Shown here piece by piece: positions 1 to 41,474 of a stretch of 41,610 bases of DNA. Position 1 is the stretch's first letter, and each line of letters opens with the position of its first letter. The notes below the pieces were generated by a model that did no database searches, was not told the DNA's origin, and was given only the letters and a program-made list of their open reading frames with translations. Made by a program: the position numbers and the translations under genes. Source of the stretch: Sphingomonas sp. (GTDB lineage Bacteria; Pseudomonadota; Alphaproteobacteria; Sphingomonadales; Sphingomonadaceae); assembly GCA_013817375.1 (NCBI GenBank), contig JACDCV010000005.1:1-41610 (forward strand), in the 5' to 3' direction.

Positions 1-1
1 C

Positions 2-325
2 GCCGCCGCCGCCGCCTCCGCCGCCTCCGCCGCCTCCGTCGCCTACGTCGCCGCCTACGCCTACGCCGCCTACGCCTCCGCCTACGCCGCCTCCGACGCC
101 TCCGCCGCCGCCGCCTCCGCCGCCTCCGCCGCCTCCGTCGCCTACGTCGCCGCCTACGCCTACGCCGCCTACGCCTCCGCCGCCGAGCGCGCGAAAATTT
201 GCGACAAGGTGCTTGGCGAGTTTGCCGAGGATGTCGTGCAGATACTCGTCAGCATGAATGTGCCGGGCGCGCAGTGGCTCGATTTGGCCCCTCTCGACAT
301 CGCCAAAGAGGGATCGGCGTCATGA
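2..325 (+). CDS. Alanine/serine/tyrosine-rich repeat protein, 5' truncated
   Basis: The window opens inside this reading frame, so the N-terminus is missing. About 60 visible residues are almost only Ala, Ser and Tyr with a few Val and Asp. They are followed by a normal-looking tail of about 45 residues (ERAKICDKVLGEF...) that ends in TGA overlapping the ATG of the next gene (ATGA). Phage and actinobacterial proteins with AAYAA-type repeats and a short C-terminal domain are known, and some are annotated as putative immunity proteins. That assignment here is only inference. The ATGA coupling and the in-frame GCC, TCC and TAC codons support real coding. The function is not established. Confidence 0.6.
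   Translation, partial: AAAAASAASAASVAYVAAYAYAAYASAYAASDASAAAASAASAASVAYVAAYAYAAYASAAERAKICDKVLGEFAEDVVQILVSMNVPGAQWLDLAPLDIAKEGSAS
5..181. repeat. Perfect 78-bp direct repeat with 99-bp period in GCC-rich coding DNA
   Basis: Bases 5-82 and 104-181 are identical when compared by eye, and the period is 99 bp (33 codons). The units are made of GCC, TCC, TAC and GTC triplets and encode the Ala/Ser/Tyr-rich segment of the truncated gene. Such repeats can change copy number by slippage and also break short-read assemblies, which may be why the sequence starts here. Confidence 0.85.
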
Positions 326-5915: not shown

Positions 5916-6082
5916 GGGCGCTCGCACTCCCTGCCCGTCAGGTGACGGCTCTTTGCAAGGGAGCCGCGAAAGCCGGCTATGTCGTGGAAGTCAAGATAGG
6001 GGACGTGGTTATGCGCCTTGTTCCCGCATCCCATGCACAGGAAACTGCGAAAGTTGACGACAACGAGGATTTCAGGCTTTGA
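5912..6082 (+). CDS. Small protein upstream of integrase (possible excisionase position)
   Basis: The ORF encodes 56 residues from ATG 5912 (GGAGAGG site), overlaps the preceding stop, and ends in TGA overlapping the TTG start of the integrase. It begins MRALALPARQVTALCKGAAKAGY and has a basic N-terminal helix followed by a beta-like segment (YVVEVKIGDVVMRLVP). Small proteins just before integrase genes are often excisionases or regulators, but no clear winged-helix Xis motif is seen. It is missing from the track because of its length. Confidence 0.5.
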   Translation: MRALALPARQVTALCKGAAKAGYVVEVKIGDVVMRLVPASHAQETAKVDDNEDFRL

Positions 6083-7155
6083 CCGAGGATATGCCCCGCC
6101 CGCGCCCGCCTTACATCCGCCAGGAAAGAACCCGCCACGGGCGCCTGATCTGGACATTCCGGCGCGGCGCCGAGTATGTCCGCCTGCCCGATGTCTTCGG
6201 CAGCACCGAGTTCTGGACCTCCTACAATGCCGCTCTGGAGGGCAAGAAAGCCCCGAAACCGACGCTAGGCAGGAGTGGGACGCTCGAATGGCTGGTCCGC
6301 AGATACAAGCAAAGCGGCCACTTCGCGTCCCTCGCCCCGACGAGCAAAATCAACCGCGACTATATCATGCAGGCGGTTTGCAAGGAAGCCGGACACGTCC
6401 CTTTCGTGAAGGTGACGAGGCTGAAAATTCAGGAGGCGATGGACCGCAGGGCGGCAACTCCCCACGCCGCAAATAACTTCCTCGTCGCCATGTCCGTGCT
6501 GTTCAAATGGGCCGTGGACAACGAGATGGTCGAGAAAAACCCGTGCGAAGGCGTGTCGCCGCGCAAGGACAAGATCAAGGGTTTCCATACATGGTCGATC
6601 GAGGAGGTCGAGCAATTCCGGGCAAAGCATCCGGTCGGATCGAAGCCGAGGCTGGCGCTCGATCTGTTGCTGTTTACCGGCCTACGCCGTGGCGATGTCA
6701 GGATCGTCGGCAAACAGCATGTGCGTGAGGGCGTCATCGCGCTCCGCACCGGCAAGACGAATGCTCAGGTTCATCTGCCGATATTCCCCAAATTGCAGGC
6801 GTCTCTCGACAATACGGCAACGGGGAATTTGGTGTTCCTGACCAATGCGAAGGGCGAACCGTTCGCGAACGCCCAGGCATTCGGGATGTGGTTCATTCGC
6901 CAGTGCAACGCGGCAGGGCTGCCGGCAGGATGCACAGCGCACGGATTGAGAAAAGCTGGCGCGACCATCGCAGCCAACAATGGCGCGACGGCTCATGAGC
7001 TGATGGCGATGTTCGGATGGTCGAGGATTTCGATGGCCGAAGTCTACACCAAACAGGCGGACAGGGCGCGGCTCGCAAGGGGTGCGTCGGAACGCATTGC
7101 GAACAATTCATCGTCGCACCTTCAAATAGGTGCGGCGGCGGCAGCTAAAAAATAA
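6079..7155 (+). CDS. int: Tyrosine recombinase (phage integrase)
   Basis: The 358-residue product (TTG 6079, or ATG 6091 giving 354) is a tyrosine-family site-specific recombinase that joins attP and attB. The N-terminal DNA-binding and core-binding regions occupy about residues 1-170. The catalytic domain shows Arg203 in GLRRGD, His288-x-x-Arg291 in AHGLRKAG, Trp314 in MFGWS where many members have His or Trp, and nucleophile Tyr323 in EVYTKQADR. The gene is translationally coupled to the small upstream ORF. It is the last gene of the rightward early operon and is followed by an AT-rich noncoding stretch, where an attachment site might be expected. Confidence 0.95.
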   Translation: MTEDMPRPRPPYIRQERTRHGRLIWTFRRGAEYVRLPDVFGSTEFWTSYNAALEGKKAPKPTLGRSGTLEWLVRRYKQSGHFASLAPTSKINRDYIMQAVCKEAGHVPFVKVTRLKIQEAMDRRAATPHAANNFLVAMSVLFKWAVDNEMVEKNPCEGVSPRKDKIKGFHTWSIEEVEQFRAKHPVGSKPRLALDLLLFTGLRRGDVRIVGKQHVREGVIALRTGKTNAQVHLPIFPKLQASLDNTATGNLVFLTNAKGEPFANAQAFGMWFIRQCNAAGLPAGCTAHGLRKAGATIAANNGATAHELMAMFGWSRISMAEVYTKQADRARLARGASERIANNSSSHLQIGAAAAAKK

Positions 7156-8805: not shown

Positions 8806-9113
8806 GATCCGACCACCTCCGTAGTCCCATCCCAGACGAACTGGTCGAGCGGGAAATGCTTGCCGCAGCCGACGCAAAAGGTGCCGCTGTAGAAGTAGGG
8901 ATCGCGGGCATAAGTCTCGGCGATGGAAGAACCCATTCTGGTGACCGAGCCGCAGGGATTGTGGACGTATTTCTCGCGGTAGGGCCTAACGAAGCCCTTG
9001 GCGCGCTCATCGGCCGAAAGCACGACGTAGCCTTTCTGCTGGCCGTTTTCTTTCAGTTCGCGATGGTCGGCTGTGACGGGACCGCCGCCGGCCAGTTCGG
9101 TTTTCGTATTCAT
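8802..9113 (-). CDS. Hypothetical protein with CxxC motif between holin and spanins
   Basis: ATG 9113 (MNTKTELAGGG) is used because it overlaps the stop of the holin-like gene, while the tracked start at 9248 lies inside that gene. The product has 103 residues, is soluble, and has Tyr- and Arg-rich middle segments with a C-terminal FCVGCGKHFPLDQFVW motif that may bind zinc with an earlier Cys. Small proteins of this style occur in rhizobial phage lysis modules. Function is unknown. Confidence 0.65.
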   Translation of the reverse strand: MNTKTELAGGGPVTADHRELKENGQQKGYVVLSADERAKGFVRPYREKYVHNPCGSVTRMGSSIAETYARDPYFYSGTFCVGCGKHFPLDQFVWDGTTEVVGS

Positions 9114-9427
9114 CACTTCTTCTCCGGGCTGTGGACGATGATGTCGGGGACGCCGGCGGGAGTTTTCAACACAACATCCTCGCCCTTGGGGATTTGCTGG
9201 TCGACGACCTTTGCCGTCTCCATGGCTTTGACGGACGGGCGCTTCCATGCGGCATAAAGCGCCGGCCCGCCCGACAGGATAATGCCAGTGGTTAGGACAA
9301 CCGCCTGCTCGACAATCGTGTTGGCGTCGAGTTCGGAAAAGCCCTTGCTGACCAGCCAGACGCCAAGCCCGGATATCGAGTAGCGAAGGAAAATCATCAG
9401 GATCGGAGCGACGGATTCGAAGGTCAT
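9113..9427 (-). CDS. Holin candidate with two membrane helices
   Basis: The protein has 104 residues. Two hydrophobic stretches (APILMIFLRYSISGLGVWLV and EQAVVLTTGIILSGGPALYAAW) are followed by a polar tail. The pattern resembles the Pam3-gp28-type putative phage holins, and the gene sits directly downstream of the endolysin with an ATGA overlap. A holin would accumulate in the inner membrane and open it for the endolysin at a set time. The assignment rests on topology and position. Confidence 0.7.
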   Translation of the reverse strand: MTFESVAPILMIFLRYSISGLGVWLVSKGFSELDANTIVEQAVVLTTGIILSGGPALYAAWKRPSVKAMETAKVVDQQIPKGEDVVLKTPAGVPDIIVHSPEKK

Positions 9428-15655: not shown

Positions 15656-17683
15656 CTACATGGTCCTCGCTTGCGCGTTCGCGACCTTGCCGCCGATCGA
15701 CCGGCTCAGCTGCTTGTCATAGGCGCCGATGCCTTGCCGGGTGACCTGCGCGGCCTTGCGCTCCGAAACGCTCTCGACGAAAGGCATGAGATTGCCGTTG
15801 TTGTCGGCCGAGACGCCGACCGTGACGTGCATGCCCCGAGAACTACCCGAGCCCCCGCCCCTCGGAACAACGAGTTCGCCCCGCTGGAGGATTGCCGGAA
15901 CTTCGCCTGCCTGAAGTCCAGCCACGCCGCCCTTATGATAGCGGCGCGCGCCGGCAAAGACACCTGGCGAGACCGAGCGGCCGTGGCCGTAGCCGTCTTT
16001 TCCGGCGACACCGCCCTTGTGCAGGATTCCGGGGATGATCTTGCCACCGAGGAGGCCGCCGCCCAGGCCGCCCAGCCCACCACCACTGAACAAACCGTCC
16101 AGCGCCATGTCCAGCAATTTGCTCGCTACCTTGTCGAGCGCCCCAGCGAGGGCTTCAGAAGCAGATTTCCCCTCGCGGAGATCGGAGATGAAACCGCCCA
16201 TGACATCCTTGCCGAGATCGGCGAACTCCTGTGCCGATTCGCGCGCGCGGTCCTGCGTCTCCAGAAGCCTCTGCGCCTCGACCGAGGCCGTGGCATAGCC
16301 TTCGGCCAGCGTGTCGATCTGCGTCCGCAGCGCTGGCGTGATCGCAATGCCGGCTTGCTGCGCAGCGTTGAGCAGTTCCTGCACTGAGCGGGCTTTGTCG
16401 AGGGTGTAGCCGTAATCCTCGACAAGCGGATTGACGCCAGCCTGCGCCGCGGTCTCAGCGATCAGGGCAGCCGTGCGCTCCTTGATCTGCGCCGTCTCGC
16501 GGGCGAACTCGTTTTCGCGCTTCGAGCCGCCGCCACCGCCGCCCGAACCTCGCCCAACAGGCGCAGCGTAATCGGAAAGGGAAACCGGCTTGATGACCGA
16601 ATTGGGCTTTGTGGCTGTAATCTGGGTTGGAGTTCGAAAGGCGCCATCGAACCTGGCCTGGATTGCATCCTGGCTGATTTTTTCGCCGCGTGAGCCTTTC
16701 AGGTATTTGCCGATCGCATCGGCGCCGACGGCCCGGCCTGCCTGTCCCGCAAGTTCCTGGATCTTCGAGATCACCCCGACGAGCGATTCCCCGAATTCCA
16801 GAGCACCATTTATCAGCGGCGAGAAATCAGTGTTTGCGATCCAGTCGCCAAGGACCTGCAACGCCTCGGACATGCGCTCGGTCGCGCCCGAGCTGGAATT
16901 GAGTTCGCCGGCCGTGTCGATGAGGATGTTCTGGAGGCGCACGAAGGATTGGCTGACAGTCAGCGAGGAACCGGCGACCTTGTCTTCCAGCATGGAAGCG
17001 CCGGCCTCAAACGCCCGGAAAAACACTTCGGACGATATCTTGCCGTCGATCACCAATTGCCGCAGTTTTGCGACCGAGCCTCCGGCTTCCTCCAGACCAG
17101 CCGCCGCCGCCTGCGCCACTGGCAGCGCGCCCTCCAGGATTGAGTTGAATTCTTCGGCCCGAACCGTGCCGGAGCCGAGCGCCTGACCAAGCTGAAGAAG
17201 CGCGCCGGATGCCGACTGCGCATCCGTGCCAGCCACCCTGAGCGCCAGGGCGACGTTGTCGGTGAAGCCAAGCAGTTCCTCGGTCGAAACGCCGAGTTCC
17301 TTCTGCACGATCGCCGCGCGGCCGTAGAGCGTGACCAGGCTCTCCAGCGGTGCAGCATTGCGTTGCGCGCTGGCAAACAGACGGTCATAAACCTTCGAAA
17401 GCTCGGACCCCGACAGGCCGGCCACTTTCAGCGCATTGTCAATCCGCGTCGCCGCGTCGACCAATTGCTGCGCGCCGCGAAGCGAAGCAGCGCCTGCGAA
17501 GGCGGCCAGAAGGCCCCGACCGCTGCCGCCCATCGTCGCCAGCCGCGATTCCAGTTGCTTGCCGCGCCGCTCGATCTTGGTAAAAGTCGAATTCGTGTTG
17601 CCGAGCGCCTTGTTGAGCGCACGGTCATACTTGTTGAAATTCGCTTCGAGAGTGGCGATCAGCCGCTCAACTTCGATGGCCAT
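15656..17683 (-). CDS. Tail tape measure protein
   Basis: ATG 17683 (MAIEVERLIATLEANFNKYDRAL) gives 675 residues; the tracked start at 17746 would run over the divergent plus-strand gene. The N-terminal 250 residues match the tape-measure N-terminal type (SLVTLYGRAAIVQKELGVSTEEL, AEEFNSILEGALPVAQ). Hydrophobic and helical regions follow, then a Gly-rich stretch (GRGSGGGGGGSKR), coiled coils and a C-terminal Gly/His repeat-like end (HKGGVAGKDGYGHG, YHKGGVAGLQAGE). It sets tail length and is threaded through the tube during infection. It has about the usual size for a tail near 100 nm. Confidence 0.93.
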   Translation of the reverse strand: MAIEVERLIATLEANFNKYDRALNKALGNTNSTFTKIERRGKQLESRLATMGGSGRGLLAAFAGAASLRGAQQLVDAATRIDNALKVAGLSGSELSKVYDRLFASAQRNAAPLESLVTLYGRAAIVQKELGVSTEELLGFTDNVALALRVAGTDAQSASGALLQLGQALGSGTVRAEEFNSILEGALPVAQAAAAGLEEAGGSVAKLRQLVIDGKISSEVFFRAFEAGASMLEDKVAGSSLTVSQSFVRLQNILIDTAGELNSSSGATERMSEALQVLGDWIANTDFSPLINGALEFGESLVGVISKIQELAGQAGRAVGADAIGKYLKGSRGEKISQDAIQARFDGAFRTPTQITATKPNSVIKPVSLSDYAAPVGRGSGGGGGGSKRENEFARETAQIKERTAALIAETAAQAGVNPLVEDYGYTLDKARSVQELLNAAQQAGIAITPALRTQIDTLAEGYATASVEAQRLLETQDRARESAQEFADLGKDVMGGFISDLREGKSASEALAGALDKVASKLLDMALDGLFSGGGLGGLGGGLLGGKIIPGILHKGGVAGKDGYGHGRSVSPGVFAGARRYHKGGVAGLQAGEVPAILQRGELVVPRGGGSGSSRGMHVTVGVSADNNGNLMPFVESVSERKAAQVTRQGIGAYDKQLSRSIGGKVANAQARTM

Positions 17684-17699
17684 GGGAGGTTCTCTCGCG

Positions 17700-17912
17700 A
17701 TGGGAATTGAAAAGACGCGCCGATTTTGCCCCGAGGACAATCGCATGGTGCTGGCGGAACGGCAGACGCCGAACCACTTGCTTCACCTGGTGCTGTCGGT
17801 CCTGACGCTGGGGCTTTGGCTTATCGTCTGGCTTGCGCAGGCCATCTATCCCCGGCCATATCTATGCCCGATGTGCGGCGGGAAGACTAAGCGGCGCGGC
17901 CTTTTCGACTAA
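17700..17912 (+). CDS. Zinc-ribbon membrane protein encoded against the tail operon (moron)
   Basis: ATG 17700 with a GGGAGG site nine bases upstream gives 70 residues. An N-terminal Cys segment (RRFCPEDNRMVLAERQTPNHLL) is followed by a transmembrane helix (LHLVLSVLTLGLWLIVWLAQAI) and a C-terminal YLCPMCGGKTKRRG. The layout C...TPNHLLHL...LWLIVW...CPMCG is a recognisable family of small membrane zinc-ribbon proteins found in bacteria and phages, with unknown function. It starts 17 bases from the divergent tape-measure start and its stop overlaps that of the tail chaperone on the other strand. It is likely expressed in the prophage from its own promoter. Confidence 0.8.
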   Translation: MGIEKTRRFCPEDNRMVLAERQTPNHLLHLVLSVLTLGLWLIVWLAQAIYPRPYLCPMCGGKTKRRGLFD

Positions 17913-18058
17913 GCCGCGCCCCTGACCCTCATTACCGCCAGATCGAATTCGTCTTCGCTCGGCGGCGGTGCCTTGCCATCGCCATGCGCCTTGTTCCACT
18001 GCCGGCAGATCGACCCCCACTGCCCGAGCGAAAGATCGCCGACATTCTGCACGTTCAT
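17909..18058 (-). CDS. Short tail assembly protein (rcc01693-like), 49 aa
   Basis: Found by reading the minus strand; it is not in the track. ATG 18058 overlaps the upstream TGA (TGATG) and the frame runs 49 codons to TAG. The peptide MNVQNVGDLSLGQWGSICR and the later HGDGKAPPPSEDEFDLAV fit the small proteins that follow the tail chaperone in alphaproteobacterial phages and gene transfer agents, where a Trp-containing helix precedes an acidic helix. It probably works as the second tail-chaperone component, made by reinitiation instead of a frameshift. Confidence 0.7.
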   Translation of the reverse strand: MNVQNVGDLSLGQWGSICRQWNKAHGDGKAPPPSEDEFDLAVMRVRGAA

Positions 18059-18462
18059 CAGGGTTGCGCTTCCATAGAGTGCGGCGAAGTCGATGCGCTC
18101 GTCTCCGCCGCGTCCGCTTCCCCCGATGGCTGCTCCAGTTCGCCCGAGTGAACCCGCATCAGGCCCGCGAGCGCAATTGCGTAGGCCGTGTCGCGGTTTT
18201 CATCCAGCGGGCGCTCGTCGACATACTTTCGCACCTTGGCCAGAGCGTCGACCGGCTTCATGCCGCCGCCGATCAGCCCAAGCCGGATTACCTCGATGAT
18301 GTCGGTCGAGCGGGCATGCCGCACTTCGGGTGCAAGCCGCGTCGCGATCTGGAAAAGGCTGAGATCACGCTTCCGCTCCAACTCCTCGACCTCCGAAAGC
18401 CCGAGGCGGAAGGTGAAATCGCCATCCGCCCAGGCCAGTTCGACGGCCGCGTGCCTGTTCAT
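18058..18462 (-). CDS. Tail assembly chaperone, GTA-gp10 family (Phage_TAC_11-like)
   Basis: ATG 18462 (MNRHAAVELAW) is chosen over 18582 because it overlaps the major tail protein stop. The protein has 134 residues, with a beta segment GDFTFRLGLSEVEELE followed by helices IIEVIRLGLIGGG and KVRKYVDERPL, which matches the GTA gp10/TAC_11 family. It probably coats the tape measure during tail assembly. Its C-terminal tail is polar and low-complexity. The next gene begins at its stop codon. Confidence 0.85.
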   Translation of the reverse strand: MNRHAAVELAWADGDFTFRLGLSEVEELERKRDLSLFQIATRLAPEVRHARSTDIIEVIRLGLIGGGMKPVDALAKVRKYVDERPLDENRDTAYAIALAGLMRVHSGELEQPSGEADAAETSASTSPHSMEAQP

Positions 18463-18917
18463 TACGCGGCGGCCGGAACCCAAGTCACGACGCCGCTGGA
18501 AATCAGCGTGACGGAGACGGTCGCTTTCTCGTTGCGGTTGCCGGTAATTTCGAAGCCGGTCAGGTGGAACGCGCCGGCCCAATGTCCGCCGCCATTGGCG
18601 AGCGTGACGCTGTTGAGCAGCACGCGCACGTTCTTGGTGTCCTTGTCGATGAACCAGTCATGCCAGTCCGAAATCGAAGACGTGTGCAGCATGCCGCCGC
18701 CGGAGATCGACGCCGAAAGCCCGTCCTTCGTCGTTTCCTTCCATGCGGGATCGTCGGGATTGGTGCAGTCCGGAACGATGAACTCATTCGTGTCGGACTG
18801 GAAAGCAATGCCGCGTTCCGCGTTGATGAGACAGTCGGCGACGAACACTTCGGGAGAGGCCCCGTTGCCGATTTGGACGAGTATCTGCGTCCCGTTGATG
18901 GTTTTCACGAGTGCCAT
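18462..18917 (-). CDS. Major tail tube protein (Phage_tail_2/TP901-1-like)
   Basis: The protein has 151 residues. ATG 18917 is used. It has the features of siphophage tube subunits of the TP901-1 type: N-terminal MALVKTINGTQILVQIGNG, a central SASISGGGMLHTSSISDWHDWF, and a late FHLTGFEITGNRNEKATVSVTLISSG strand. It forms hexameric rings of the tail tube. Placement between DUF3168 and the tail chaperone is the standard order. Confidence 0.9.
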   Translation of the reverse strand: MALVKTINGTQILVQIGNGASPEVFVADCLINAERGIAFQSDTNEFIVPDCTNPDDPAWKETTKDGLSASISGGGMLHTSSISDWHDWFIDKDTKNVRVLLNSVTLANGGGHWAGAFHLTGFEITGNRNEKATVSVTLISSGVVTWVPAAA

Positions 18918-20691: not shown

Positions 20692-21267
20692 TTAGATTGA
20701 AATTCTGCGATAGGGCGCAAGCAGCGCGGCCGCACCCATCGGGAGTTCGGCCAGCGATCCGACGCCAACAGCCTCGCGGTTTGCATACCAGTGGCCGACC
20801 ATCAGCAGGATTGCGACCTTGAGCGGCGCAGGAACATCGGCCGCCGCGCCATATCCCGCCACAAAGCGTATCCGCACCGCGTTCACCGCATCGTACGTCG
20901 AGGGCCACGCAACATCGATTGGCAAGACCCATCCGTCCGCGCTGACGATATCAGCGTCGTAGTCAGCCGGGGCGACAGTCTGCTCGATACCGTCCGCGTC
21001 GTCGTATTTGACGCTGACGATCGATTGAAGTGGCCCAATCGGTATCTTGACTTCGCTGGATGGGAATCGGTCCAGCGTCAGTTCCCATGTCTGCGTGATC
21101 AGGCAACGACCGAGAATCCCCGAATACCCATCGAGATAGCCTGTCGCCGCCTTGATGAAGGTCGAGATCAGGTCGTCATCGTCTGCGCTGGTCACTCCAA
21201 GATGTAGTTTGGCCTCGACGAGGCTCACCGGCTCGGATGCGGGCGGTGTTACTATCCTGAGCGCCAT
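20692..21267 (-). CDS. Head-tail connector, phiE125 gp8 / gp6-like
   Basis: This 191-residue protein matches the head-tail connector family that includes phiE125 gp8. It has an N-terminal EPVSLVEAKLHLGV, DDLISTFIKAATGYLDGY, then VKYDDADGIEQTVAPADYD and a late ADVPAPLKVAILLMVGHWYANREAV helix. It forms the ring below the portal. The 3' end of the repeat-protein gene overlaps its first 92 bases in another frame. Confidence 0.88.
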   Translation of the reverse strand: MALRIVTPPASEPVSLVEAKLHLGVTSADDDDLISTFIKAATGYLDGYSGILGRCLITQTWELTLDRFPSSEVKIPIGPLQSIVSVKYDDADGIEQTVAPADYDADIVSADGWVLPIDVAWPSTYDAVNAVRIRFVAGYGAAADVPAPLKVAILLMVGHWYANREAVGVGSLAELPMGAAALLAPYRRISI

Positions 21268-22438
21268 GGCGTGTCATGTCCTGTGTCTGCGGCGTGCGCT
21301 GTGGATCGGGAAGCAGGAAGCCGCCACGCGCTGACCGCTTTCGGCGTCTGGCAAAAGTGGCAGTGACCGTTTCGTCCGCTTCCGTGATGCTGGCTTGTGC
21401 GTAATTCGTGCCAGCGCTGAGGCCGTAGGCTTCCAGCCCGTCACCTTGCTCGGCAAGGTCCAGCCCGCCGACAATTCGAAGTCCTGCCGACGACGTGAAG
21501 CCTTCACCATCCTCATTGACCGTGGCCTGCCCGCCAATCGTCAGCCTGCTAATGCTGGTGACGATGTCCCCGGCTTCCGTGACTGACGCCGAACCCGAAA
21601 TTCTAACGACAGCAGCCGCTGAAAAAGTCTCACCAGCTTCGACAATTGACGCAGCACCCGACCCCTGAATGGCTTCAAGAGTTCCGGCCGCGCCGACCGT
21701 ATCGCCCGCTTCCGAAATACTGACCGCGCCGGCAATCGGGAGCGTCCCGGTTGCCGTAATTATTGTGTCGTTCGCTTCGGTGATCGAGGCCACCGCCCGA
21801 ATAACCATTGCGCCCGACGATGTGAGCGTATCCCCCGTTTCCGGGAGGCTCGCCGTGCCAGTGATCGCCAGTGTGGCGAGTGCGGCAAGAGTATCGCCTG
21901 CCTCTGTGATTGATGCTGTGGCTGCGAGAGCAGTCACCCCAGCCGATGAAACTGTGTCCCCTGACTCCGTCTTGGCCAGTGCGCCGGCAATGGTCATCGC
22001 ACCGGTCGCTGCCGATGCGTCACCTGCCTCCGTTATCGACGACTGCCCCGCAATCAGCAGGGTAGACGCCGATGAAACTGTGTCCCCGGCCTCGGTAATC
22101 GAAGATATGCCGACAATCGCCAGTTTTGCGGCGCTTGTGACTGTATCGCCCGCCTCGACTAGCGACGCCGTTCCGGCAATCGATGAACCGAGGGTTCCCG
22201 TCGCGGCAACAGTATCACCGGCTTCCGAAACCGCAGTCGTTCCGACTATTCCCAGGGCTGCCGTTGAGGCAACCGTATCGTTTGCCTCCGTTGTCGCGGC
22301 AGTCGCAGCGAGCGCCAGAACCGCCGTCGAAACGACTGTATCGTTGGCTTCCGTGATAGCAGAAGCGCCGGCAATTCCGGTCGCGCCGGCCGATAAGTCA
22401 GCTTCCGGCGCGCCGCCGAACCAGAAGAAACCGGCCAT
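21176..22438 (-). CDS. Tandem-repeat protein with about 16 copies of a 21-residue unit
   Basis: After about 24 non-repeat residues, this 420-residue protein is built from about 16 repeats of roughly 21 residues with consensus A-S-I-T-E-A-G-D-T-V-S-S-A-G-T-L-A-I-A-G-T. It ends with a basic tail (RRRKRSARGG) followed by a stretch that overlaps the connector gene in another frame and may be nonessential. The repeats are beta-strand plus turn in style and have no Cys. The location inside the head module suggests a virion surface fiber or decoration protein. Copies have diverged, so this is an old repeat, not an assembly artefact. Confidence 0.75.
   Translation of the reverse strand: MAGFFWFGGAPEADLSAGATGIAGASAITEANDTVVSTAVLALAATAATTEANDTVASTAALGIVGTTAVSEAGDTVAATGTLGSSIAGTASLVEAGDTVTSAAKLAIVGISSITEAGDTVSSASTLLIAGQSSITEAGDASAATGAMTIAGALAKTESGDTVSSAGVTALAATASITEAGDTLAALATLAITGTASLPETGDTLTSSGAMVIRAVASITEANDTIITATGTLPIAGAVSISEAGDTVGAAGTLEAIQGSGAASIVEAGETFSAAAVVRISGSASVTEAGDIVTSISRLTIGGQATVNEDGEGFTSSAGLRIVGGLDLAEQGDGLEAYGLSAGTNYAQASITEADETVTATFARRRKRSARGGFLLPDPQRTPQTQDMTRHGAQDSNTARIRAGEPRRGQTTSWSDQRRR
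21355..22380. repeat. Degenerate 63-bp tandem repeats inside the head-module gene
   Basis: The 21-residue protein repeats correspond to units of about 63 bp. The recurring minus-strand segment encodes TEAGDTV, seen on the plus strand as variations of ACTGTGTCCCC(G/A)GC(T/C)TC. Some units are 66-72 bp because of small insertions. Boundaries are approximate and judged by eye. Confidence 0.7.
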
Positions 22439-40472: not shown

Positions 40473-40738
40473 GCGACGGCCTTCTCGGTGGGGGTGTTGG
40501 TGGGAGCGGTGGGTTCGGGACGATTGAATTCATCAGGCCAGACCGCGGCCGCCGGCCAGTTCGCCGAGAACCAATGCAGCGCGGCATTGAACCGCCCGAG
40601 CGTGATGTCTGACCCTGTGCGGAGCGCCGCCAGCTTCTTGCTGTCTCCGAAAAGCCTGTGGCTGACCGTGACATCCTCCAGAGAGGTTGCCTGTTTGTAA
40701 GCGTCGGCGACGGCGAGGAGGTGTGCGATTTCAATCAT
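40469..40738 (-). CDS. First gene of the leftward operon, small helical protein
   Basis: ATG 40738 gives an 89-residue product starting MIEIAHLLAVADAYKQATSLEDVT; the tracked codon at 40747 is TTG. The motif VSHRLFGDSKKLAALRTGSDITLGRFNAALHWFSANWP is typical of phage early proteins, and HTH-like helices make a Cro-like role attractive. No ribosome site is seen, so it may be leaderless. It is transcribed away from the repressor across the operator region. Confidence 0.72.
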   Translation of the reverse strand: MIEIAHLLAVADAYKQATSLEDVTVSHRLFGDSKKLAALRTGSDITLGRFNAALHWFSANWPAAAVWPDEFNRPEPTAPTNTPTEKAVA

Positions 40739-40747
40739 GTTCAACAA

Positions 40748-40765
40748 TTCGGTTATTTTACCGAA
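40748..40765. promoter_or_regulatory. Operator-like palindrome 1
   Basis: TTCGGT-TATTTT-ACCGAA, a perfect 6-bp inverted repeat with 6-base spacer between the divergent early genes. It is probably bound by the CI-like repressor. Two related copies lie within 60 bases. Confidence 0.75.
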
Positions 40766-40771
40766 TATGTC

Positions 40772-40789
40772 AACGGTTATCTTACCGAA
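40772..40789. promoter_or_regulatory. Operator-like palindrome 2
   Basis: AACGGT-TATCTT-ACCGAA, with one mismatch in the outer half relative to site 1. It is 24 bases from the first site. A TTGACA (minus strand) lies at 40768-40773, overlapping it. Confidence 0.7.
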
Positions 40790-40805
40790 TGCGAAGCGAA
40801 GGCTT

Positions 40806-40823
40806 TTCGGTCAAAATACCGAT
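40806..40823. promoter_or_regulatory. Operator-like palindrome 3, abutting the repressor start
   Basis: TTCGGT-CAAAAT-ACCGAT, ending one base before the repressor ATG. The position suggests autoregulation of the repressor. The spacing between site centres is 34 bases from site 2. Confidence 0.7.
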
Positions 40824-41474
40824 ATGATTTTGAAGGATATTCTCACGCGCATAGACCGTCGGCTGGTGGCTAAAAACCTGGCTGAATCGGCGGCGGCGAC
40901 AAAGGCCGGCCTCAGCAACTCCGCGATCCGCAACATGCGGCGCGCCGTCAAGGCAGGGAAAAACCAAGGTGCGTCGATTAAGACCATCGAGGCGCTGGCT
41001 CCTGTCCTTGGGACATCATCGGCATGGCTGTTGGAAGAGCGCGGCCCCGAAGAGGGCGACGGCAGCATCGGCGCGCCTATCGTCGAGGCGAAGCTGATAT
41101 CGTGGATCAGCGCCGGCCAAATTGCTCAGAACCCAACGGTTCAGATTGCCGACCTCGAATATGCGCCGACCGTCTATGCCCCGGATTTAGACCCGGAAGG
41201 CGACTGGATAGCGCTTCGGGTCGACGGAGATTCGATGAACCGCATATCCCCACACGACTCAATCATCTTCGTAAACCGCAAGGACCGCCGGCTCGTTCCG
41301 AACGCCTGCTATGTGATCGGCGATGGGGACGGCGGCGCGACCTATAAGCGCTATCGCCCGCCGAACAGTTGGGCGCCGGTTTCAACAAACAAGGCGCATC
41401 AGCCTTTCATTCTCCCGGCCGGCGTCGATCCCGACATCATCGGCCGCGTGAAAAAGACTATCCTTTCGATGTAG
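40824..41474 (+). CDS. CI-like repressor with S24/LexA-like autoprotease domain
   Basis: ATG 40824 (MILKDILTRIDRRLVAK) gives 216 residues; the tracked extension to 40737 covers the operators. Residues 5-70 form an HTH_3-like domain (NLAESAAATKAGLSNSAIRNMRR). After a charged linker comes the S24 peptidase domain with cleavage-like Ala97-Gly98, nucleophile Ser137 in DGDSMNR and Lys175 in TYKRY. It represses lytic genes and would self-cleave during the SOS response. No ribosome site is visible before the ATG, so it may be leaderless like lambda cI. Confidence 0.92.
   Translation: MILKDILTRIDRRLVAKNLAESAAATKAGLSNSAIRNMRRAVKAGKNQGASIKTIEALAPVLGTSSAWLLEERGPEEGDGSIGAPIVEAKLISWISAGQIAQNPTVQIADLEYAPTVYAPDLDPEGDWIALRVDGDSMNRISPHDSIIFVNRKDRRLVPNACYVIGDGDGGATYKRYRPPNSWAPVSTNKAHQPFILPAGVDPDIIGRVKKTILSM

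What the first reader, a model, noticed from the sequence alone, without database searches (positions are those of the whole stretch)
17700..17912. Zinc-ribbon membrane moron facing the tape-measure start
Seen: a plus-strand gene with a good ribosome site starts 17 bases from the divergent tape-measure ATG and ends tail-to-tail with the 49-residue tail protein. The family (CP...TPNHLLHL...LWLIVW...CPMCG) is recognisable but functionally uncharacterised. Inference: expression in the prophage may alter the host envelope or exclude other phages. It interrupts the usual chaperone/tape-measure neighbourhood.
Basis: partly seen in the sequence, partly recalled or inferred. Interest (0 to 1): 0.55.

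Follow-up and report, generated by a model that had tools for sequence, protein, structure and literature searches.

The report
Swappable antisense envelope gene beside tape-measure
A tiny prophage gene for a membrane-anchored zinc-ribbon protein sits backwards next to the tape-measure gene, in a slot where related phages carry other, unrelated membrane or periplasmic proteins or nothing at all, which suggests an exchangeable shield against the DNA injection of rival phages that lysogens could be tested for.

Summary
The gene is real (70 aa, + strand, 17700-17912). It is 16 nt from the divergent tape-measure (TMP) ATG, and its stop interlocks by 4 nt with the stop of the 49-aa tail gene. dN/dS among relatives is 0.03-0.09. 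It has three cysteines, not four: the first knuckle is CPED, and every TMP-linked relative has Asp/Glu there. Four-Cys relatives exist elsewhere, and the layout is LITAF-like (a zinc ribbon split by a hydrophobic hairpin).

The larger finding is the slot. In 65 dereplicated relatives that share this TMP, the junction is either closed (22) or, with one unresolved exception, holds a small gene transcribed against the tail operon. That gene belongs to one of four unrelated families (zinc-ribbon 16, B 8, C 7, D 7) or is one of four singletons, all with a signal-peptide-like or membrane segment. Phages with nearly identical TMP N-termini carry different cargo or none (C/empty 99.6%, C/D 98.6%, D/B 97.9%).

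HK97 gp15 occupies the same junction, and P22 sieA lies antisense beside the injection gene it antagonises. The best reading is an exchangeable cassette for superinfection exclusion at DNA injection. The slot is shown; the exclusion function is inferred (about 50%).

The parts
17700..17912 (+). Slot cargo gene: 70-aa membrane zinc-ribbon-like protein (family A)
   Evidence: homologues in the same slot; dN/dS 0.03-0.09
17727..17738 (+). First knuckle C10-P-E-D13 (C-x-x-D, not C-x-x-C)
   Evidence: position 13 is D/E in all TMP-linked members
17775..17846 (+). Hydrophobic hairpin, residues 26-49, with the invariant TPNHxLHL just before and in it and W40, W44
   Evidence: conservation; model with helices 26-35 and 39-49, pLDDT 75, pTM 0.41
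17865..17876 (+). Second knuckle C56-P-M-C59
   Evidence: both invariant in 16 relatives
17684..17699 (+). Intergenic of 16 nt between the divergent starts; GGGAGG ribosome-site-like at 17684-17689
   Evidence: no sigma-70-like promoter found here
15656..17683 (-). Tape-measure protein gene (675 aa), divergent neighbour
   Evidence: PF20155 1.8e-51 and PHROG 17300 1e-165
17909..18058 (-). 49-aa conserved tail gene, convergent neighbour; marks the upstream edge of the slot
   Evidence: phrog_18467 1.9e-5; profile hits beside TMP in most related loci
17909..17912 (.). 4-nt overlap of the two convergent stop codons
   Evidence: the same 4-nt overlap in 26 of 42 occupied slots from six of the cargo families
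17893..17920 (.). 10-bp GC-rich inverted repeat at the convergent 3' ends; terminator role unproven
   Evidence: one found, 1.1 expected by chance
18058..18462 (-). GTA-gp10-like tail gene (TAC11)
   Evidence: PF11836 2.1e-17
18462..18917 (-). Major tail tube protein gene
   Evidence: PF06199 1.3e-13
6079..7155 (+). Tyrosine integrase: temperate phage
   Evidence: PF00589 6.2e-14
40737..41474 (+). S24-type repressor: temperate phage
   Evidence: PF00717 2.4e-9

Best explanation
The gene is the cargo of an exchangeable antisense slot between the 49-aa tail gene and the tape-measure gene of a family of siphophages, many of them from alphaproteobacterial hosts. Shown: the slot is empty, or filled by a small gene from one of several unrelated families; the cargo is divergent from TMP, usually abuts or interlocks with the upstream gene's stop, encodes a protein with a membrane or signal-peptide-like segment, and differs between phages whose TMP N-termini are nearly identical. 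Inferred: because it runs against the late operon, the cargo is expressed from the prophage. The protein (here a zinc ribbon probably held on the cytoplasmic face of the inner membrane by a re-entrant hydrophobic hairpin) blocks DNA entry by superinfecting phages whose TMP forms the conduit across the periplasm and inner membrane. Staying beside TMP keeps the exclusion type linked to the injection type it must match, and exchange of the cassette changes its reach.
For: Slot states and families. Exchange between near-identical TMP backgrounds and empty sites. Envelope targeting of all eight cargo families against 8-13% of control ORFs. Other junctions of the same operon stay closed. Purifying selection. 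Temperate phages. Parallels: HK97 gp15 in the same junction, P22 sieA antisense 22 nt from gene 16, with escape mutations in genes 16 and 20 (PMC10883804); SNIPE, a membrane nuclease associated with TMP during injection (PMC13190303).
Against: No sequence relation to any proven exclusion protein: HK97 gp15 is PF13974 YebO and the slot family profiles do not match it significantly; PADLOC finds nothing. HK97 gp15 runs with the late operon, not against it. No promoter is recognised in the window and the two-box promoter score for the slot is only slightly above chance. Families B, C and D look periplasmic while A looks cytoplasmic-faced, so a single mechanism is not given.
Confidence: 0.5

Rival explanations
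1. Generic lysogenic conversion: the slot is a safe harbour for any small prophage-expressed envelope gene that helps the host (stress, colonisation, surface change), and its place beside TMP only reflects a tolerated insertion site.
For: Cargo families are unrelated and mostly without known function; morons of many functions are known (general knowledge). The slot is one of the few open junctions of the operon.
Against: All eight families are envelope proteins, and a neutral site would be expected to hold cytoplasmic genes too; two proven exclusion genes lie at the equivalent place.
Confidence: 0.25
2. Defence at another step: the cargo acts on tail assembly of the superinfecting phage (as Tab and Tai do) or as a membrane-bound sensor, rather than blocking injection.
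For: Tab is a minus-strand prophage moron with its own promoter that targets TMP during assembly (PMC10884400).
Against: Tab was soluble when expressed alone; here the cargo looks membrane-bound or exported, where incoming TMP but not assembling TMP is expected.
Confidence: 0.09
3. A phage function in the lytic cycle: the cargo helps assemble, insert or regulate the phage's own TMP or lysis, or the antisense transcript regulates the tail operon.
For: Conserved place next to TMP.
Against: The slot is empty in 22 of 65 relatives, including ones with near-identical TMP; unrelated proteins replace each other; strand is opposite to the late operon; purifying selection on the protein argues against a pure RNA role.
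Confidence: 0.08

Closest known systems
HK97 gp15 (superinfection exclusion moron, YebO-like PF13974)
   Same: Sits exactly between the tail assembly chaperone and the TMP gene; small protein with a hydrophobic segment; exclusion escaped by hybrids with other tube and TMP genes (PMC10883804).
   Different: Same strand as the late operon; no sequence similarity to the zinc-ribbon family; no cysteines.
P22 SieA
   Same: Antisense to the virion operon, 22 nt from gene 16, whose product it antagonises; inner membrane; prophage-expressed; own promoter; present in only part of the relatives.
   Different: Short-tailed phage, larger protein with three predicted membrane segments, convergent with gene 16 rather than divergent, not replaced by unrelated families at that place as far as reported.
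Tab (Pseudomonas phage JBD26)
   Same: Minus-strand late-operon moron with its own promoter; antagonises the TMP of competing phages (PMC10884400).
   Different: Lies between the terminase genes, acts at virion assembly, was soluble when expressed alone, has a cognate anti-Tab.
LITAF-domain proteins (PF10601)
   Same: Zinc-ribbon halves separated by a hydrophobic stretch of about 22 residues; four-Cys relatives of this protein match PF10601 near full length and the related bacterial protein L176 passes its cut-off.
   Different: The window protein itself does not match; its first knuckle is C-x-x-D; LITAF is described from eukaryotes and acts in endosomal trafficking (PMC5142333).

Membership tests
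LITAF-like zinc ribbon (PF10601) | Two C-x-x-C pairs flanking the hydrophobic stretch | tested here: not met
   Window protein: C-x-x-D and C-x-x-C. Met in relatives L009, L011, L025.
LITAF-like zinc ribbon (PF10601) | Score above Pfam's cut-off | tested here: not met
   No hit for P0001; 6 of 16 relatives below cut-off, best 1e-3; L176, a distant relative, passes with 31.7 bits.
LITAF-like zinc ribbon (PF10601) | Zinc binding and monotopic membrane insertion | not testable with these tools
   Needs purified protein; the model shows two short helices with a turn, which is compatible only.
HK97 gp15 / YebO (PF13974) | Sequence match | tested here: not met
   gp15 itself hits PF13974; the window protein does not, and the family profiles do not match gp15 significantly.
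HK97 gp15 / YebO (PF13974) | Position between chaperone-region gene and TMP | tested here: met
HK97 gp15 / YebO (PF13974) | Superinfection exclusion activity | not testable with these tools
   Needs plating assays.
Phage moron | Extra gene between two genes that are adjacent in relatives | tested here: met
   22 of 65 relatives have the two neighbours joined.
Phage moron | Own promoter and terminator | tested here: inconclusive
   None recognised in the window; in relatives a -10-like element exceeds shuffles but the two-box score barely does.
Phage moron | Expressed from the prophage | not testable with these tools
   Needs RNA-seq of an uninduced lysogen.

The most novel reading that the evidence does not exclude
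A dedicated, TMP-linked antisense slot that rotates unrelated inner-membrane and periplasmic exclusion proteins, each tuned to a type of injection conduit: an arsenal locus from which new anti-injection proteins can be read off by position, including a phage zinc ribbon built like eukaryotic LITAF.
Probability: 0.42. Interest if true: 0.78.

Novelty: new variant of a known kind. Interest (0 to 1): 0.62.

Why it matters
Proven exclusion proteins that act on injection by long-tailed phages are few. If the slot is what it seems, position alone nominates at least four protein families without a known function as anti-injection proteins. Natural pairs with nearly identical TMP N-termini but different cargo or an empty slot give ready-made controls. 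It would also tie the separate cases of HK97 gp15 and P22 sieA together under one rule: exclusion genes travel next to the injection gene they antagonise.

Tried and rejected
Fold searches of the zinc-ribbon model and of a family C model gave no credible match (no E-value below 0.8). PADLOC, NCBIfam and plasmid searches found nothing. A general sigma-70 two-box score of slot promoters gave only a weak excess (7.5 vs 7.1 in shuffles; empty slots 6.8 vs 6.8), so the promoter is claimed only as suggestive. A homology of HK97 gp15 to the phage 16-3 slot ORF (5.7 bits in a single-sequence comparison) was rejected as not significant. Antisense-RNA control of TMP and a tail-assembly role were considered and rated low. 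The class-wide genome search (385 genomes) found, besides the window, only two distant relatives, neither recognised as lying next to a TMP gene, and 60 near genomes have none, so the gene appears to travel with phages, not with the host lineage.

Full report
What is there. The ORF 17700-17912 (+) encodes 70 aa. It starts 16 nt from the divergent TMP ATG at 17683, after GGGAGG, and ends with its stop interlocked by 4 nt with the stop of the 49-aa tail gene 17909-18058 (-). TMP is PF20155 (2e-51), the next genes are the GTA-gp10-like PF11836 and the tail tube PF06199, and the phage is temperate (integrase PF00589, S24 repressor, RecT). The gene is coding: related copies have dN/dS 0.03-0.09, with most changes at third codon positions.

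Protein. Invariant in 16 relatives are MG, C10, TPNH, L28, H29, L30, L32, G38, W40, W44, C56 and C59; two slot members found later begin MS and have APNH. There are three cysteines, not four. Position 13 is D or E in every TMP-linked member (CPED, CEDD, CEEE, CQEE, CPEE, CPDD, CPQE), H in L024 (whose contig ends before any TMP gene), and C only in members found in other surroundings (L009, L011, L025). D, E, H and C can all bind zinc (general knowledge), so a Cys3-Asp/Glu site is plausible but unproven. The layout, two knuckles split by a hydrophobic hairpin, is that of the LITAF domain. PF10601 matches 6 of 16 members below threshold, near full length in the best cases, and the bacterial protein L176, retrieved with this family's profile, exceeds its cut-off. 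LITAF itself is a membrane protein with both ends cytosolic and a zinc-ribbon or rubredoxin fold (PMC5142333). The AlphaFold model shows two strands and a helix-turn-helix hairpin, but with pTM 0.41, and it matches no solved fold.

The slot. 80 loci were fetched by similarity to TMP, independent of the cargo, with more, four annotated phages and phage 16-3. Loci fetched with the zinc-ribbon protein itself are also in the set, so the share of family A is inflated. In loci where the 49-aa gene could be recognised, its stop either lies close to the TMP start (-11 to +45 nt, one at 72) or is 177-460 nt away; two loci have larger inserts (669 and 2764 nt). Every larger gap but one (L111) holds a gene of a recognised cargo family on the strand opposite to the tail operon, divergent from TMP. 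After dereplication at 97% TMP identity (65 loci): 22 empty, 16 zinc-ribbon (A), 8 B (ETYRLVHAIGN...GSITCLP, signal-peptide-like start), 7 C (NEIDDAMKRIGPAYMCGP..., signal-peptide-like start), 7 D (VDNFT...VTNNT...DCAFL, signal-peptide-like start), single cases E, F, G and H, and one unresolved. The single cases rest on one sequence each and are weaker. The family profiles do not match each other's representatives. B, C, D, F and G have no significant Pfam or PHROG match, E only weak PHROG matches, and H no Pfam match. Representatives of all eight families carry a strong hydrophobic segment (window-13 Kyte-Doolittle 1.9 or more), against 8-13% of 249 control antisense ORFs. Control junctions are closed: major tail to TAC about 5 nt with one large exception, TAC to 49-aa gene at most about 100 nt, TMP to next gene at most 21 nt with one exception. 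26 of 42 cargo genes, from six of the families (A, B, C, D, F, G), overlap the upstream stop by exactly 4 nt.

Exchange. On trees of the TMP N-terminus the cargo label changes 30 times (65 rows) or 27 times (61 rows, four odd ones left out); these are quick trees with some long branches, so the counts are approximate. Pairs with nearly identical TMP N-termini carry different states: L104 C / L134 empty (99.6% over 241 aa), L091 C / L094 D (98.6%), L076 D / L141 B (97.9%), L005 A / L094 D (96.6%). In L134 the 49-aa gene's TAA is followed directly by the TMP ATG; L104 has 331 nt there, while the first 300 nt of TMP are 99.7% identical. For the window's own lineage the nearest TMP relative (L035, 70% identical) has an empty slot.

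Expression. In the longer intergenics a -10-like element sits 9-17 nt from the TMP start, with TTGC from the first TMP codons at -35 spacing in many; the -10 match exceeds shuffles (3.62 vs 3.07 +/- 0.16, 0 of 500), but a two-box score is only slightly above chance. The position range was chosen after looking at the sequences, so this is suggestive only. In the window the intergenic is 16 nt and no promoter is recognised. Prophage expression is therefore inferred from orientation.

Function. HK97 gp15 lies in the same junction. PMC10883804 lists it among proteins that block DNA injection and says that hybrids with HK022 tube and TMP genes escape it. P22 sieA is antisense, 22 nt from gene 16, with its own promoter; it is an inner-membrane injection blocker whose escape mutations are in genes 16 and 20, and it is present in 22 of 66 P22-like phages. 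Tab is another minus-strand prophage gene with its own promoter, and it targets TMP. SNIPE shows that a membrane protein can associate with TMP during injection. Together with the envelope targeting this makes superinfection exclusion at injection the best single explanation for the slot, at about even odds; most of the rest goes to generic lysogenic conversion.

Literature. Searches for an antisense cargo slot at TMP found no description. The library holds only open-licence papers, and the original HK97 gp15 paper is not in it, so absence there is weak evidence of novelty.

Noticed in passing
L112 4049-4216 (-), Rhizobium phage 16-3 NC_011103 about 9037-9204: Unannotated 55-aa antisense ORF with one hydrophobic segment in the TMP slot; its stop overlaps the p016 stop by 4 nt.
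   Followed up: partly
L175 538-1719 (-): 393-aa protein of an alphaproteobacterial genome with an N-terminal four-Cys version of this zinc-ribbon/hairpin module and a peptidoglycan-binding domain PF01471 (3.4e-16).
   Followed up: no
L176 1423-1998 (+): Bacterial protein with a LITAF-like domain above Pfam's cut-off plus further zinc ribbons; prokaryotic relatives of a domain described from eukaryotes.
   Followed up: partly
L009 6001-6369 and L025 5056-5373 (+): Four-Cys relatives with a second zinc ribbon after the first, outside any tail operon; in L009 primase-like and antirepressor-like genes are nearby.
   Followed up: no
L004 6298-7350 and beyond: Slot enlarged to 2764 nt: besides the zinc-ribbon gene it holds an antirepressor-like (BRO-type start) gene and other sequence.
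   Followed up: no
L064, slot of 669 nt: Apparently two antisense genes in tandem in the slot (family D plus a second ORF).
   Followed up: no
window 21176-22438 (-): 420-aa ORF made of about 20-residue repeats (..SITEAGDTVSSAGTLAIAG..) next to the head genes; role unknown.
   Followed up: no
window 1-185: Low-complexity CGCCGCCTC repeat at the contig end, a likely assembly break.
   Followed up: no
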